From Bacillota bacterium (GTDB lineage Bacteria; Sysuimicrobiota; Sysuimicrobiia; Sysuimicrobiales; Segetimicrobiaceae): a stretch of 58,005 nucleotides of DNA. The notes beneath the pieces were generated by a model, which made no database searches, had not been told where the DNA came from, and saw only the letters and a program-made list of their open reading frames with translations. Location of the stretch: positions 1 to 58,005 of the forward strand of contig JAJPIA010000085.1 in the NCBI GenBank assembly GCA_021324975.1, written 5' to 3'. Positions 11,367-18,012 of this stretch are shown here, in pieces. Position 1 is the stretch's first letter; each line of letters opens with the position of its first letter. The position numbers and the translations under genes were made by a program.

Positions 11367-12890
11367 ATGGACCTCGACCGCAGCATCGGCCAACTGTTCA
11401 TGGTGGACTTCACCGGCTATGCGCCCGATCCCGAGGTGCTCCGGCTGATCGAGGACGGGGGCGTCGGCGGCGTGATCCTCTTCGTGAAAAACGTGGCCTC
11501 CGCCCGGCAAGTGGCTGCGCTCACCAACGCCCTGCAGGAGGCCGCTGCCCGGGCGGGGTACCCTCCGCTCCTCGTCAGCGCTGACCAGGAAGGCGGTCCG
11601 GTTGTCCGGCTGCCGCGAGAAGCCACGCACTTCCCGAGCGCGATGGCGTTTGGCGCGGCGGGCAGCGAGGCGCTCGCGGCTTCTGCCGCGGGCGTCACCG
11701 CCCGCGAGTTGCGTGCCGTCGGGATCCACATGAACATGGCGCCCGACATGGACGTCAACAACAACCCGGACAATCCGGTCATCGGCATCCGCTCGTTCGG
11801 TGAGGACCCGCACCGTGTCGCGAGACTCGGCAGCGCCGCCGTTCGGGCGATGCAGGCGTCGGGCGTGCTCGCCACCGTGAAGCACTTTCCGGGGCACGGC
11901 GACACGTCGCTGGACTCGCACCTCGATCTCCCGGTGGTGCCCCATTCGCGGGCGCACCTCGACACCGTGGAGTTGCAGCCGTTCGTCGCGGCGATCCGAG
12001 CGGGTGTCGGCGCGGTCATGACGGCGCATGTCGTCTATCAGGCGCTAGACCCCGATCGGCCGGCTACGCTATCCCCGGTCGTCCTCGGGATGCTCCGCAC
12101 GCACCTCGGGTTCACGGGCCTCATCGTCACTGACTCGATGGCCATGCAGGCAATCACGGACCGGCACGGACCCGGCGACGCCGCGGTCGAGGCGATCCTG
12201 GCCGGCGCGGATATCGTCCTGGCGTGCGGCCCCATCGCGGCGCAACGAGAATCCATCGAAGCGGTCCGGCGCGCCGTGGACCGCGGGCGCATCCCCGCGT
12301 CGCGGATCGCGGAGTCGGTGGCCCGCGTGGCTGCCGCCAAGGAGCGCCTCAATCTAGGCAAGGGTGCCACCGTTGCCGTTGACGGTGTCGACGCGACGGT
12401 CGGCGTGCGGGCCCACCGGGACGTCGCCGAGCACGTCGCGGAGGCCGCGGTCACGCTCGTTCGCGGTGGCCGGTCCGCGGTGCCCCTCCCGCCGGGGCCG
12501 GTTTCGGTGGTGGCCGTCAATGGGGCTCCGCCCGAGGCTGCCGATGGGTTGGCGGCGGCGCTGCGGGAAGCAGGCCGCGAGGCGGACGTCCGCTCGGTCG
12601 ACGCGGCGCCAGGACCTCGCACCGCGCTCGTCGCCGTGCTCGGCCGCTGCGCAGACCTCGACAGCGGCGCGCGCGAAGCGGTCATACGGACGCCGGCGAC
12701 TCCGGTGGCCGCGGTCGCCGTCGACGTGCCCTACGGGCTTGCGCGATTGCCCCGCGACGTCGGCTGCGTGGCCGCGTACGGATGGGATCCGGCGTCGCTG
12801 CGCGCCGCGGCGCGCGTGCTGACCGGCAGCCTCGCGCCCCGGGGACGGCTACCCGTCACGCTCGACGAGCCGGGCGAGACGCGCGCGTAA
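11367..12890 (+). CDS. nagZ: GH3 beta-N-acetylhexosaminidase (NagZ-like)
   Basis: A 507-residue glycoside hydrolase family 3 protein. ATG 11367 gives the family-typical N-terminus (MDLDRSIGQLFMVDFTGY). KHFPGHGDT (172-180) holds the catalytic His/Asp dyad loop seen in NagZ-type enzymes, and the nucleophile Asp is in VTDSMAM (about 256). About 170 C-terminal residues form an extra domain, as in Gram-positive NagZ, with a Val/Ala-rich fold. No signal peptide is seen, so the enzyme is probably cytoplasmic, cleaving GlcNAc from imported wall or chitin fragments. No ribosome site precedes the ATG, and a possible -10 (GATAAT) lies 12 bp upstream. Its last 42 bp overlap convergently with mrfB. Confidence 0.85.
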   Translation: MDLDRSIGQLFMVDFTGYAPDPEVLRLIEDGGVGGVILFVKNVASARQVAALTNALQEAAARAGYPPLLVSADQEGGPVVRLPREATHFPSAMAFGAAGSEALAASAAGVTARELRAVGIHMNMAPDMDVNNNPDNPVIGIRSFGEDPHRVARLGSAAVRAMQASGVLATVKHFPGHGDTSLDSHLDLPVVPHSRAHLDTVELQPFVAAIRAGVGAVMTAHVVYQALDPDRPATLSPVVLGMLRTHLGFTGLIVTDSMAMQAITDRHGPGDAAVEAILAGADIVLACGPIAAQRESIEAVRRAVDRGRIPASRIAESVARVAAAKERLNLGKGATVAVDGVDATVGVRAHRDVAEHVAEAAVTLVRGGRSAVPLPPGPVSVVAVNGAPPEAADGLAAALREAGREADVRSVDAAPGPRTALVAVLGRCADLDSGAREAVIRTPATPVAAVAVDVPYGLARLPRDVGCVAAYGWDPASLRAAARVLTGSLAPRGRLPVTLDEPGETRA

Positions 12891-14135
12891 CCGATCGGCG
12901 AGGCGCGCCACCCCCGCGGCGGGAGCCCCGTGCAGCCCCGCGGTCCCGTCGATCAGCTCATCGACGATCGACAGCGCTTCTGTCACCGCGGCACGGGCAC
13001 CCCGGATATCGTGTTGTCGGGTGCGGGCCTTCGCGACCTCTTCCAGCACATGCGCGCGGAACCGGTCGGGCCGCATCCACGTGCCGGCCTCCGCCTCCCA
13101 CCGCCGTCGTGCACCGTCAGGATCGTGGACCGCGCGATGCGCGCGGGCGAGCTTCTGGAGCACCCGCCACCGATCACCCGGCTCACATGCGTCCCGCATG
13201 GCGCGCTCGAAGCACTCGATCGCAACGGCATGCGCGCCCCGCCGGCCGACGAGCACGCCCGTCCCTTCCCAATCGAGCGCCACCCCGGCGTCGAGCGGCG
13301 CGCGCAGGATCCGGGAGACCTCGCCGTGCAGGAGCACGAGCGCGAGCAGGTCGGCGCGGTTGTGGACGAGGATGGGATCGAGCGCGGCACGGTCCGTGTC
13401 GCGCAGATACCGGATGTAGATGCCGGGGATCTCCCAGCCCGGCACGTCGTGGTTCCGTGGTGCTCCGAGCACCTCGGCCTCGAGCGTGCTCAGGCGATGG
13501 GTCCCGAGGACCCGATGCCACAACCGCCGCGCCGGGTAGATGAGGTCGGTGTGCGCGTCGAACGACGCCGGCCGCTGCCGCGCGAGGATGAAGCGCGCCT
13601 CGATGATGGGCCAGTCGAACCGCTGCCCGTTGAACGTGACGAGATGCCGCGCGCCCGCAAGCCGCTCGGCCAGGACGGAGAGGAGCCGGCGTTCGCCGGA
13701 GAGGCGCCTGAGCAGCAACTGCTCAACGACGAGCTGTCCGCCGCCACAGTAGGCGAGCCCGACGAGAAACGCGTACGTCCCCGTGCCCCCGGCGAGCCCG
13801 GTGGTCTCCGTGTCGAGCCAGACGGTGCGTCCGAGGTCGCCGCCGTGGTCGATCGAGCGGAGCGCGTTCCCGACGGCGCAGCGTCCGTGCCGGTGGCCCG
13901 GTCCAAACCCTGCGCGCAGGATCTCCACGCCGTCGCCGACGGCGGCCGGTGCGAGCCCCGTTTCGAGCGAGGTCGCCGGCGGCGCCGCCGTGGCCACCGT
14001 CTCGCCGGTCCGCGGCATCGACGCCGGACGGCCGGGCGCGCGTCCGGTGGCACCCGCGCCGAGACGGCGCAGCCGCTCGCGTATCGCTTCGCCGCCGGGC
14101 GCGACGTTGGACGCCTCAGGCTGGTACGCAGACAT
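12849..14135 (-). CDS. mrfB: MrfB/YprB-like DEDD 3'-5' exonuclease
   Basis: A 428-residue protein with an RNase H-like exonuclease fold. Metal-binding acidic motifs are WLDTETTGLAGGTGTYAFLVG (DTET near 108-111), FNGQRFDWPIIEAR and HNRADLLAL. An Ala/Arg-rich helical tail resembling TPR follows. This matches Bacillus YprB (MrfB), the nuclease partner of helicase MrfA in repair of mitomycin-type DNA damage. I chose ATG 14135, which overlaps the mrfA stop by 20 bp, because upstream codons are low-complexity. The gene is co-transcribed with mrfA, probably under the LexA-type box at 16431-16444. Its 3' end overlaps nagZ tail to tail. Confidence 0.85.
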   Translation of the reverse strand: MSAYQPEASNVAPGGEAIRERLRRLGAGATGRAPGRPASMPRTGETVATAAPPATSLETGLAPAAVGDGVEILRAGFGPGHRHGRCAVGNALRSIDHGGDLGRTVWLDTETTGLAGGTGTYAFLVGLAYCGGGQLVVEQLLLRRLSGERRLLSVLAERLAGARHLVTFNGQRFDWPIIEARFILARQRPASFDAHTDLIYPARRLWHRVLGTHRLSTLEAEVLGAPRNHDVPGWEIPGIYIRYLRDTDRAALDPILVHNRADLLALVLLHGEVSRILRAPLDAGVALDWEGTGVLVGRRGAHAVAIECFERAMRDACEPGDRWRVLQKLARAHRAVHDPDGARRRWEAEAGTWMRPDRFRAHVLEEVAKARTRQHDIRGARAAVTEALSIVDELIDGTAGLHGAPAAGVARLADRLRARLARLVERDG

Positions 14136-16371
14136 CCCGCAGCAGGTGCAGGGCGCGCCGCTTGGCTTCCGGGCCGAGCTCGAGGACGGGGCCGACACAG
14201 GACGGGCACCCGTGCTCGCAGCCACACCCCTCGACCAGCGATGCGGCGGCGTCGAGGAGCTCGCGGCGCAGCGCAAACAACCGCTCCGCGAGCCCGACGC
14301 CGCCGGGGATCTCCTCGAACAGCGTCACCGTGGGCTCGCCGGTGTGCGGCGACCGGATCTCCACCGTGGAGCCCAAATCGCGCGGATCCGTCATCAGGTA
14401 CAGCGGCGCGATGTTCTGCAGCGCGTGCGCCACGCCGAGCAGCGCGCCCTGCAGCGCGTCGGTGCCCATCTCCGGAACCCGGGCTCGCGGAAACACCCAC
14501 CACGCCGCGGTGGTGTGCAGCGTGGTCTCGGGCAGATGGATCGTCCCGAACCCGACGTTTTCGTGTGTGGCGAGGCGCAACTTCTTGAAGATCGTCGGGC
14601 GAAACGTGACGGCCGCCTCGCCGTGCGCCGCGTCACGCTCGCGCGCAAACTCCTCGAGCACACGCACGCCGACCGCGATCTGCGCGTCCGTGTAGTAGTC
14701 CACGTCGACCTGGCGGACGTACGCCTTACGCTCATCCCAGTCCAGGCGGTCCACGTGGTACTGCCGGCCCAGGTGAATGTAGATCGCGTCCTCGTGCACG
14801 AACGCGGGCGCGGACGGCAGGTCGATCTCCCCGATGACGCGCGGCCGCGGCTCCGTCGTGTCGATGATGACGACATTTTGCGGGCTGGCGCTCCGGAGGC
14901 TCACGCCTTCGGCCGGGTAGGCCTCGGCGACGTAGTGCCACGCGTTGTCCTCGTGATGCAGGACTCCCTCCTCTTCGAGATACGCGAGGATCTCCGGGAG
15001 AGTATTGGGGCCGAACGTCTCGTCGTCGCGCACCGGCAGCTCGAACGCGGCGCACTTGACATGGCTCGCCAGCACGAGCAGGTTATCGGGGTTGATGCGC
15101 GCCTGCTCGATGGGCTGGTCGAACAGATACTCCGGGTGGGTCGCGATGAACTGATCGAGCGCGCCGCTGGTGGCCACGAGGACCGCAAACGAGCGGTCGG
15201 CCCGGCGTCCGGCCCGGCCCATCTGCTGCCACGTGCTGGCGATGGTGCCGGGGTAGCCGACGAGGACGGCCGCGGAGAGCTGGCCGATGTCGATGCCGAG
15301 CTCGAGCGCATTGGTGGCGGCGACGGCGCGGACCGATCCGCCACGCAGCCCCGCCTCGATCGTGCGCCGCTCGCTCGGCAGGTACCCCGCGCGGTAGCCG
15401 CAGATTGCCTCGGGGTCGACGTGCTGACGCCGTGCGGCGTCGCGCAGATACGTGGTGAGCAACTCGGCCCGCAGCCGGGTACGGGCGAAGAAGATCGTCT
15501 GAATCCGACCCTTGAGCAGCTCCTCGGCGACGGCCACCGATTCGCGGACCGCGTCCCGCCGAATGCCGAGCGCGGGGTTGACGACGGGCGGGTTGTAGAC
15601 CGCCACCGTCCGCTCGCCGCTCGGGGCGCCGCTCTCGTCGAGGACCGCGACGGGCCGCTCGAGCAGCCGGGCGGCGTGCTCGCCGGGGTTGCCGATCGTC
15701 GCCGAGCAGCAGATGAACCGCGGCGCGCTGCCGTAGAACCGGCAGATACGGTCGAGCCGGCGCAGCACGTTTGCCAGGTGGGAGCCAAACACGCCGCGGT
15801 AGTGATGCAGCTCATCGAGCACCACGTAGCGGAGGTTCTCGAACAGGCGGAGCCACTTCGTGTGGTGCGGCAGGATCGCGGTGTGGAGCATGTCCGGATT
15901 CGTCACCACGATGTGGCCGGCGGTCCGGATCGTCCGGCGCGCATCGCCCGGGGTGTCCCCATCGTACGTATACGCGCCGATCTCGACCTCGAGTGATCGG
16001 ATCAGCTGCTGGAGCTCGTCCACCTGGTCGGCCCCGAGCGCTTTGGTCGGAAAGAGGTAAAGCGCTCGCGGGCCGCCGCCTCGCAGGATCGCATCCAGGA
16101 CGGGCAGGTTGTAGCACAGGGTCTTGCCGGACGCCGTGGGCGTCACGACGACGATGTCGCGCCCCGCACGAACCTCCGCAAACGCTTTGGCCTGGTGCGT
16201 GTACAATTGCGCGATCCCAGAGCGGGCGAGCGCATGCCGCAGGCGCGGATCCATCGTCTCGGGAAACTCCACGAACTGCGCCCGCTTCGCCGGAAACGTC
16301 CGCCACGCCGTGAACTGCGGCGCAAAGCGGGGTCGGGTACGGTAGGCGTCGAGAATCTGCTCCAGCGTCAT
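14116..16371 (-). CDS. mrfA: MrfA/YprA-like superfamily 2 DNA helicase with C-terminal Cys4 domain
   Basis: A 751-residue helicase. Walker A is TPTASGKT (77-84), the box II motif is DELH (about 186-189) and SAT is at about 223-225. The second RecA domain contains QQMGRAGRR. The C-terminal DUF1998-type zinc module ends with CGCEHGCPSC. The order and length match YprA (MrfA), the DNA-damage helicase paired with MrfB. ATG 16371 follows a GGGAG ribosome site. An in-frame upstream extension has no family sequence. mrfB follows with overlap. The upstream LexA box suggests damage induction. Confidence 0.92.
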   Translation of the reverse strand: MTLEQILDAYRTRPRFAPQFTAWRTFPAKRAQFVEFPETMDPRLRHALARSGIAQLYTHQAKAFAEVRAGRDIVVVTPTASGKTLCYNLPVLDAILRGGGPRALYLFPTKALGADQVDELQQLIRSLEVEIGAYTYDGDTPGDARRTIRTAGHIVVTNPDMLHTAILPHHTKWLRLFENLRYVVLDELHHYRGVFGSHLANVLRRLDRICRFYGSAPRFICCSATIGNPGEHAARLLERPVAVLDESGAPSGERTVAVYNPPVVNPALGIRRDAVRESVAVAEELLKGRIQTIFFARTRLRAELLTTYLRDAARRQHVDPEAICGYRAGYLPSERRTIEAGLRGGSVRAVAATNALELGIDIGQLSAAVLVGYPGTIASTWQQMGRAGRRADRSFAVLVATSGALDQFIATHPEYLFDQPIEQARINPDNLLVLASHVKCAAFELPVRDDETFGPNTLPEILAYLEEEGVLHHEDNAWHYVAEAYPAEGVSLRSASPQNVVIIDTTEPRPRVIGEIDLPSAPAFVHEDAIYIHLGRQYHVDRLDWDERKAYVRQVDVDYYTDAQIAVGVRVLEEFARERDAAHGEAAVTFRPTIFKKLRLATHENVGFGTIHLPETTLHTTAAWWVFPRARVPEMGTDALQGALLGVAHALQNIAPLYLMTDPRDLGSTVEIRSPHTGEPTVTLFEEIPGGVGLAERLFALRRELLDAAASLVEGCGCEHGCPSCVGPVLELGPEAKRRALHLLRDVCVPA

Positions 16372-16430
16372 GCGCGGCTCCCTGTCGCCTGGTGCCAACG
16401 GTGCGTCGTTGAAGGGGTCCTTAGCTTCGA

Positions 16431-16444
16431 CGAACGCCTGTTCG
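16431..16444 (-). promoter_or_regulatory. LexA/DinR-type SOS box upstream of mrfAB
   Basis: CGAACGCCTGTTCG is a perfect 5-bp-arm palindrome with a 4-bp spacer. On the minus strand (CGAACAGGCGTTCG) it matches the Gram-positive/actinobacterial LexA consensus CGAAC-RNRY-GTTCG at every position. It lies 60 bp upstream of the mrfA ATG, just downstream of a weak possible promoter. The palindrome extends to GACGAAC/GTTCGTC. Binding is inferred. Confidence 0.75.
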
Positions 16445-16560
16445 TCATGGTGTAGGTGATTCCTGCTTTGCCGGGAAACGTGCGTGCCGGGCCACCGAAA
16501 TCTCACCAGGCACGTACAGCGTGGCGTCGGAAAGGTCGAACGCCCGTTACGCTAGCGCGC

Positions 16561-18012
16561 CTACAGTCCGGCCTCTTCGAGACCCAATCGCCGTCCGAGA
16601 GCCTGAAGGGCCGTCGTAAAGCAGCCCCGCGGGGCGGCGGTAGTCCCGGCCCCGATCTGCCCCATGCCCGGCAGGCGGTGGGCGATGCCGGTGTCAATGA
16701 CGGGGACCAGGCCGCTCTCCACCACGCGCCGCACGTCGATCGCGGTCGGCGTCCCGGCGAACCCGAGCGACGGAATGCCGTACGCCTGGCTGCGCGTCAG
16801 CGTGATCCGGTACATCGCGCGCGTGTAGGCGACGGCGTCGGCTGTGGTGCCGCCGATAAACCGCACGATGGCGGGCGCCGCGGCCATGGCGAATCCGCCG
16901 ATGCCGCACGTTTCCGTGATCGCGCTGTCCCCGATGTCCGGGTTGGCGTCCTGCGCACCGTACCCGGGAAAATACAGCCCGTCCGGCGCACCCGCGGGTG
17001 CCGTGAACCAGGCCTCGCCCGTCCCGCTGACGCGGATGCCGAACTCCACGCCGTTACGGGCCATCGCGGTCACGACCGAGGAGCCATCGATGCCGTGGGC
17101 CGCATCGAGCGTGGCTTTGCACGCCGCCATGGAGAAGTTGAGATAGAAGTGGTCGTTCCCGCGCATGAACTCGAGCGCAGCCGCGGCATCGTCCGGTGCG
17201 GCGCGGACCAGCGTCGGCGCGATGGTGCGGATCAGGATGGACGTCCCCGCGACGTTGCGGTTGTGGCACTCATCGCCCATCTGCAGCGCCCGCGCCGTGA
17301 GATCCCGCAGGTCCACCGGCGCCGCCCGCAGCGTCCGTCCGAGCGCCGGGCCCAGCGTCGCGGCGAACCACCGAAGTCGCTCCAGCACGGCCCCGTCATA
17401 GGCACCATAGCGGAGCATCTTGCCGATCCCCTCGTTGAGGTTCGAGAATGCGCGGTTGCCGAAGGCTTGGTTCTCGACCACGATGACCGGCATCGAGGGC
17501 GAGACGATGCCGGCCATCGGCCCGACCGTCGCATATTCATGGCATGGTGCAAACTCGACGGCGCCACGGCCGGCGAGTGCTTCGGCCTCGGTGGGCGTCG
17601 TCGCCCATTCCTCGAGGAGCATCGCGCCGATGGCGGCTCCGCGCATCGGACCGCACATGCGCTCCCACGTGATCGGCGGACCGGCATGGAGCAGCATCCG
17701 CGACCCCATGCCGGGGATCACGTCGGCGGCGGTACGGACGTCGACCGCCACGGGGCGGCCCTCCACGATCCGGCGCACGGCTTCCGCGTTGGCCCTCGCC
17801 ACCAGCGCCCCAATCGGATCGTCGGGGTCGTCCTCGAGCCGCGCCAGGAGCAGCCCAAGCGCCCGGTCCCCCTCGGCCGGCGGTCGCCACTGGACGTGCA
17901 GGCACGCCCCGCCGTGAGTCTGGATCGGCTCCGCAAAGCCCGCGAGGCCGATATTGATCGCGCGGATGCCACCGGTGAAGATCGTGGATGGCCGGGCCGG
18001 CTCCCCCGTCAT
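16561..18012 (-). CDS. DUF1116 protein, AllG/YlbE-like subunit
   Basis: A 483-residue DUF1116 protein. Conserved blocks include GIRAINIGLAGFAEPIQTHG, GMGSRMLLHAGPPITWERM, GAMLLEEWA, GDECHNRN and GNDHFYLNFSMAACK. In E. coli the homologue YlbE (AllG) works with FdrA (AllF) and YlbF (AllH) as an oxamate carbamoyltransferase in allantoin breakdown. Its ATG overlaps the stop of the upstream fdrA-like gene (ATGA, 18009-18012). The usual third subunit (DUF2877) and a carbamate kinase are not present nearby, so the reaction here may differ. The family call is firm; the function is inferred from E. coli. Confidence 0.83.
   Translation of the reverse strand: MTGEPARPSTIFTGGIRAINIGLAGFAEPIQTHGGACLHVQWRPPAEGDRALGLLLARLEDDPDDPIGALVARANAEAVRRIVEGRPVAVDVRTAADVIPGMGSRMLLHAGPPITWERMCGPMRGAAIGAMLLEEWATTPTEAEALAGRGAVEFAPCHEYATVGPMAGIVSPSMPVIVVENQAFGNRAFSNLNEGIGKMLRYGAYDGAVLERLRWFAATLGPALGRTLRAAPVDLRDLTARALQMGDECHNRNVAGTSILIRTIAPTLVRAAPDDAAAALEFMRGNDHFYLNFSMAACKATLDAAHGIDGSSVVTAMARNGVEFGIRVSGTGEAWFTAPAGAPDGLYFPGYGAQDANPDIGDSAITETCGIGGFAMAAAPAIVRFIGGTTADAVAYTRAMYRITLTRSQAYGIPSLGFAGTPTAIDVRRVVESGLVPVIDTGIAHRLPGMGQIGAGTTAAPRGCFTTALQALGRRLGLEEAGL

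What the first reader, a model, noticed from the sequence alone, without database searches (positions are those of the whole stretch)
16372..16560. Perfect LexA/DinR-type SOS box in front of mrfAB
CGAACGCCTGTTCG (16431-16444) fits the Gram-positive/actinobacterial LexA consensus exactly on the minus strand (CGAAC-AGGC-GTTCG), 60 bp upstream of the MrfA helicase start. MrfA and MrfB are a DNA-damage helicase/nuclease pair that repairs mitomycin-type adducts. The box suggests the pair is placed directly under SOS control in this lineage, which I do not know to be established for the family.
Basis: partly seen in the sequence, partly recalled or inferred. Interest (0 to 1): 0.7.

Follow-up and report, generated by a model that had tools for sequence, protein, structure and literature searches.

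The report
SOS box controlling mrfAB repair genes
In this uncultured soil bacterium, and in nearly all relatives across its whole phylum, the genes for a helicase-nuclease pair that removes mitomycin-type DNA damage sit behind a conserved binding site for the SOS repressor LexA, so the repair pair is almost certainly switched on by DNA damage.

Summary
Confirmed. CGAACGCCTGTTCG (16431-16444) is an exact LexA operator, 59 nt before the ATG of mrfA. MrfA is the clear counterpart of B. subtilis YprA/MrfA; mrfB follows and overlaps it. The genome has two full lexA genes. recA and lexA1 carry the same operator type (CGAAC-N4-GTTTG). Exact boxes also precede uvrA, dinB, ruvC, rmuC and a radical-SAM gene. 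Of 26 mrfA orthologues in the phylum, 23 have an exact box and 25 have at most one mismatch within 150 bp of the start (shuffles: 0.003 and 0.24). The bases between the half-sites and the flanks vary freely. A paralogous YprA-only/SftH-type helicase in the same genomes has none (0/20), and uvrA/uvrB are not boxed outside the window's genus. So mrfAB is a core SOS target of this phylum. Outside it, 16/82 orthologues (Chloroflexota, Bacillaceae, some Clostridia) also carry a box (0.38 expected), so the control is not lineage-specific. Extra and unexplained: mrfA and ruvC share AGGA at 16-18 bp before the box, and mrfA occurs only in genomes with the second LexA. No binding or induction data exist. 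The papers I could search do not mention this regulation.

The parts
16431..16444 (-). LexA operator (SOS box) CGAACAGGCGTTCG
   Evidence: conserved in 25 of 26 phylum orthologues
16461..16464 (-). AGGA element, 16 bp before the box; shared spacing (16-18 bp) at mrfA and ruvC promoters; role unknown
14116..16371 (-). mrfA (yprA): SF2 DEAD/DEAH helicase with HRQ1-type winged helix and MrfA zinc-binding domain, 751 aa
12849..14135 (-). mrfB (yprB): DEDDh exonuclease plus C-terminal helical region, 428 aa; overlaps the 3' end of mrfA by 20 nt
16378..16383 (-). AGGGAG, likely ribosome-binding site of mrfA
   Evidence: read
16372..16560 (-). intergenic region between the upstream same-strand gene (ends 16561) and mrfA; no sigma-70-like promoter or terminator found by consensus scan

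Best explanation
The site is a working LexA operator. In undamaged cells a LexA dimer sits on it at the mrfA promoter and keeps the mrfAB operon low. DNA damage makes RecA filaments that trigger LexA self-cleavage, and mrfA and mrfB are then co-expressed to unwind and degrade DNA around bulky adducts. mrfAB is one of the best-kept SOS targets of this phylum, kept more widely than uvrA/uvrB. Shown here: the site, its conservation, the matching operators at lexA1 and recA, the gene identities and the operon layout. Inferred: LexA binding, repression, damage induction, and repair function by homology to B. subtilis.
For: Exact site, 13 vs 2 control sites genome-wide. Two LexAs, recA CGAACATATGTTTG and lexA1 CGAACAGGTGTTTG. 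Exact boxes at uvrA, dinB, ruvC, rmuC and the Rv2578c-type radical-SAM gene. 23/26 exact and 25/26 within one mismatch in the last 150 bp before mrfA, shuffles mean 0.003 and 0.24. 15 different N4 cores while the ten contact bases are 96-100% fixed and flanks drift. YprA-only paralogue 0/20. mrfB adjoins mrfA in nearly every locus with enough flank, and never adjoins the paralogue. Outgroups: 16/82 boxed vs 0.38 expected, several placed between -35 and -10.
Against: No expression or binding data. No clear sigma-70 promoter overlaps the box in the window genome. The two weak sites in the phylum (G014 two mismatches, G013 one) belong to families whose LexA1 recognition helix has changed, which fits rather than contradicts, but they are exceptions. 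The upstream same-strand gene could read through into mrfA.
Confidence: 0.9

Rival explanations
1. The box is used, but mainly by the second repressor, LexA2, giving mrfAB (and perhaps ruvC) a sub-regulon apart from the recA/lexA1 core.
For: mrfA is present in 31 of 36 genomes with LexA2 and in 0 of 7 without (Fisher p = 2.5e-5, not corrected for relatedness; three separate lineages lack both). recA and lexA1 boxes end in GTTTG while mrfA and lexA2-type boxes end in GTTCG. lexA2 keeps its own CGTAC-N4-GTTCG sites. mrfA and ruvC share the AGGA-N16-18 element that recA lacks.
Against: imuA keeps a CGAAC-N4-GTACG site even in genomes that lack LexA2, so site class does not map cleanly on repressor. 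LexA1 and LexA2 recognition helices are similar. Two-LexA genomes G019 and G022 lack mrfA. Joint loss of damage-tolerance genes explains the co-occurrence as well.
Confidence: 0.3
2. LexA binds the box, but mrfAB is also driven by a second regulator or unusual sigma factor that reads the AGGA element, so LexA is only one input.
For: AGGA or AGGG at 16-18 bp before the box in 24 of 25 mrfA promoters (other spacings mean 0.46, max 2). 41 composite hits in the phylum vs 4 for the reversed pattern; 34 of the 41 are at mrfA (21), ruvC (11), uvrA or dnaB.
Against: No candidate regulator was found. In some genomes AGGAGG is part of a hairpin-like inverted repeat, so it could be several unrelated things.
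Confidence: 0.35
3. The exact match is a chance palindrome, or coding constraint from the longer open frame, with no regulatory role.
For: A few of the 13 genomic sites are plainly inside unrelated genes such as gyrB.
Against: Conservation over several families with free N4 and flanks. In relatives the box starts at -28 to -129 from mrfA, in different frames. The paralogue control is 0/20.
Confidence: 0.02

Closest known systems
LexA (DinR) operators of Bacillus subtilis and Actinobacteria
   Same: CGAAC-N4-GTTCG / GTTYG dyad at recA, lexA and repair genes; Bacillus core given as GAAC-N4-GTTC in PMC4234289, Streptomyces tCGAAC-N4-GNNCGa in PMC9380542
   Different: A target (mrfAB) for which I found no report; two LexA paralogues with slightly different own operators in one genome
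B. subtilis mrfAB (yprAB) mitomycin repair operon
   Same: MrfA matches 6znp over 22-745 (E 4.5e-257) and MrfB matches 8un9 (E 4e-27); same gene pair
   Different: SOS control is not mentioned in the MrfB paper PMC11194089 (0 occurrences of SOS or LexA); here an operator is present and conserved
SftH / YprA-only helicases (TIGR03817)
   Same: Same helicase family; a copy is present elsewhere in this genome (C97; 42% identical to MrfA)
   Different: No MrfB neighbour (0/20) and no SOS box (0/20)
Two-LexA bacteria such as Leptospira interrogans (PMC3789691)
   Same: Two lexA genes in one genome
   Different: There reported in a spirochaete (title and abstract only read); here both are nearly phylum-wide, each with its own conserved operators

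Membership tests
LexA/SOS regulon target (CGAAC-N4-GTTCG type) | Genome encodes self-cleaving LexA and RecA | tested here: met
   both LexAs keep AG site, GDSM Ser and ATVK Lys (sequences)
LexA/SOS regulon target (CGAAC-N4-GTTCG type) | Same operator motif at lexA and recA | tested here: met
   lexA1 25/25 CGAAC-N4-GTTTG; recA 21/29 the same, 7 in family f4 CAAAC-N4-GTTTG together with a changed LexA1 helix
LexA/SOS regulon target (CGAAC-N4-GTTCG type) | Operator near the promoter of the gene, conserved in relatives | tested here: met
   25/26 in phylum
LexA/SOS regulon target (CGAAC-N4-GTTCG type) | LexA binds the site; transcript rises on damage in a RecA-dependent way | not testable with these tools
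   needs gel-shift and RNA measurements
MrfAB (YprAB) | MrfA: SF2 helicase core, HRQ1-type winged helix, MZB domain with four Cys | tested here: met
   Pfam DEAD, Helicase_C, WHD_HRQ1, MZB; C716, C718, C722, C725 invariant
MrfAB (YprAB) | Adjacent MrfB with DEDDh exonuclease core | tested here: met
   RNase_H_2; DTE, NG..FD and HN..D segments align with 8un9
MrfAB (YprAB) | Protects from mitomycin C | not testable with these tools
   uncultured organism; by homology only
YprA-only / SftH helicases (TIGR03817) | Score over the family cut-off 874.1 | tested here: not met
   window MrfA 660.7 bits; the paralogue scores 862.9, just under

The most novel reading that the evidence does not exclude
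mrfAB and ruvC form a distinct SOS promoter class in this phylum: an AGGA element at fixed spacing plus a symmetric CGAAC-N4-GTTCG box, served mainly by a second, dedicated LexA, so that adduct and crosslink repair is switched by a LexA2 sub-regulon separate from the recA/lexA1 core.
Probability: 0.25. Interest if true: 0.7.

Novelty: new member of a known kind. Interest (0 to 1): 0.55.

Why it matters
MrfAB is a recently found excision pathway whose regulation is not described in the papers I could search. Here it is a core SOS target of a whole uncultured phylum, kept where uvrA/uvrB are not, which suggests that in these bacteria the damage-inducible excision route is MrfAB rather than UvrABC. 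The same boxes in Bacillaceae and Chloroflexota make the idea testable in cultured strains.

Tried and rejected
Chance palindrome: rejected. Coding constraint: rejected (box frame and distance vary). Control by the YprA-only paralogue: it lacks the box. General SOS control of excision repair: uvrA has an exact box only in the window's genus (G000; 1 of 29 others scanned, G001) and uvrB has 0 exact (three of 30 loci mis-placed by short contigs; only 250 bp scanned). AGGA as a ribosome-binding site of a leader peptide: no consistent start codon follows. AGGA as a sigma-70 -35: in genomes with a TATAG-like -10 next to the box the spacing is too short. The clean rule 'LexA1 = GTTTG, LexA2 = GTTCG': not held, because imuA sites persist without LexA2. 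Burby & Simmons 2019 is not held.

Full report
OBSERVATION. CGAACGCCTGTTCG at 16431-16444 is the only exact CGAAC-N4-GTTCG in the window. The whole genome has 13 such sites against 2 for the reversed pattern. It lies 59 nt before the mrfA ATG (16371), in a 189-bp gap behind a same-strand gene that ends at 16561.

GENES. mrfA (14116-16371, -) has DEAD, Helicase_C, HRQ1 winged-helix and MrfA zinc-binding domains and aligns with B. subtilis YprA/MrfA 6znp over 22-745, E 4.5e-257. mrfB (12849-14135, -) has the RNase_H_2 domain and matches B. subtilis MrfB 8un9, E 4e-27. The two overlap by 20 nt. A second YprA-family gene at C97 of this genome (42% identical to MrfA) is of the SftH/TIGR03817 type and has no mrfB beside it.

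LEXA IN THIS GENOME. There are two full LexA proteins (C3 and C43). Both keep the Ala-Gly cleavage site, the catalytic Ser and the Lys (read). recA has CGAACATATGTTTG and lexA1 CGAACAGGTGTTTG; lexA2 has two CGTAC-N4-GTTCG sites. Exact CGAAC-N4-GTTCG boxes stand before mrfA, uvrA, dinB, ruvC, rmuC and an Rv2578c-type radical-SAM gene. Some of the 13 exact sites are inside unrelated genes (e.g. gyrB) and are probably chance.

RELATIVES. The phylum of this genome holds 43 genomes in the collection, all in one order and seven families. This fits the description of Sysuimicrobiota (CSP1-3) as one class and one order (PMC11604079), but the name is my inference. A same-family member is deposited as 'Bacillota bacterium isolate Centralia_MAG_45' (L119; its contig has the length of G005:C91). 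In the 300 bp before 26 orthologous mrfA genes, 23 have an exact box and two more have one mismatch. Restricted to the last 150 bp the counts are the same, 23 and 25, and 300 dinucleotide-preserving shuffles gave means of 0.003 and 0.24. Aligned on the box, the ten contact positions are 96-100% fixed, the N4 core takes 15 different forms and the flanks drift. This is the pattern of a binding site under selection, not of mere recent common descent. In the same genomes the YprA-only paralogue has no box (0/20).

COMPARISON WITH OTHER SOS TARGETS. lexA1: 25/25 CGAAC-N4-GTTTG in the loci parsed. recA: 21 of 29 CGAAC-N4-GTTTG, seven in family f4 CAAAC-N4-GTTTG, one other (one locus mis-placed and left out). 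In families f3 and f4 the LexA1 recognition helix changes from REIG..LG to RD[IV]G..L[HM] and its own operator becomes [GT]GAAC-N4-GTTTG, so operator and repressor have changed together. ruvC: 17/30 exact, 21/30 within one mismatch. imuA: CGAAC-N4-GT[AT]CG in 15/16. Other families add dnaB, dnaE2 and the radical-SAM gene (identified by eye or tblastn). uvrA has an exact box only in the window's genus, and uvrB none. mrfAB is thus among the most constant SOS targets of the phylum.

OUTSIDE THE PHYLUM. Of 82 other mrfA upstream regions, 16 have a box within one mismatch (shuffle mean 0.38, max 3). Three are exact, all labelled Chloroflexi or Dehalococcoidia. The Bacillaceae share CGAACGTTTATTCG just before a TATAAT-like -10, and Chloroflexi L126 and L131 have the box between a TTGC-type -35 and a TAAGAT -10. 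I could not examine B. subtilis 168 itself.

TWO UNEXPLAINED EXTRAS. First, AGGA or AGGG stands 16-18 bp before the box in 24 of 25 mrfA promoters (other spacings mean 0.46). The composite AGGA-N16-18-CGAAC-N4-GTTCG occurs 41 times in the 43 genomes against 4 for the reversed pattern. By position, 21 are at mrfA, 11 at ruvC, one at uvrA and one at dnaB. recA promoters instead have TTGACA-box-TA spacing. Its role is unknown: a -35 element of an unusual sigma factor or an activator site are both open. Second, mrfA is found in 31 of 36 genomes with LexA2 and in 0 of 7 without (Fisher p = 2.5e-5). The genomes are related, some are incomplete, and joint loss is a fair explanation.

LITERATURE. The MrfB structure paper contains neither 'SOS' nor 'LexA' (PMC11194089). 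Searches for mrfAB or yprA together with LexA returned no report of LexA control in titles, abstracts or the passages I read, and no held paper joins LexA with CSP1-3. The library lacks most subscription journals, so an existing report could have been missed. A YprA family study separates a MrfAB branch from a YprA-only branch (PMC12458937), which matches the two genes here.

VERDICT. Binding and induction are inferred. The kind of system is well known; the target, its phylum-wide constancy and the shared AGGA spacing are the new parts.

Noticed in passing
16461-16464 (-) and ruvC promoters (e.g. L305, L299): AGGA at 16-18 bp before the SOS box is shared by mrfA and ruvC promoters across the phylum but not by recA; unexplained composite element.
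   Followed up: partly
L014, L015 and phylum: Two LexA paralogues in most genomes of the phylum, each with its own conserved operator (lexA1 CGAAC-N4-GTTTG, lexA2 usually paired CGTAC-N4-GTTCG).
   Followed up: partly
L163, L165, L169, L171, L176: Families f3/f4 have a changed LexA1 recognition helix (RD[IV]GNAL[HM]) together with changed lexA1 and recA operators: repressor and operator changing together.
   Followed up: partly
L114, L120, L124, L140, L143: Bacillaceae mrfA promoters carry CGAACGTTTATTCG (L120: CGAACGGATATTCG) directly before a TATAAT-like -10; suggests SOS control of mrfAB in cultured Bacillaceae.
   Followed up: partly
G017:C262, G040:C55, G024:C65, G041:C47: RecA split in two matches (1-201 and 197 onwards) inside one open frame of 632-727 aa: probable RecA inteins at one site.
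   Followed up: no
L178, L185, L213: An M20-type amidohydrolase gene in three genomes has a CGAAC-N4-GTTCG site spanning its first codons (EHMF/EHLF); chance or real is unclear.
   Followed up: no
L196; L179, L188, L199: Exact box overlapping the start of a dnaG-like primase gene in G020; boxes just before dnaB in G026, G023 and G032.
   Followed up: no
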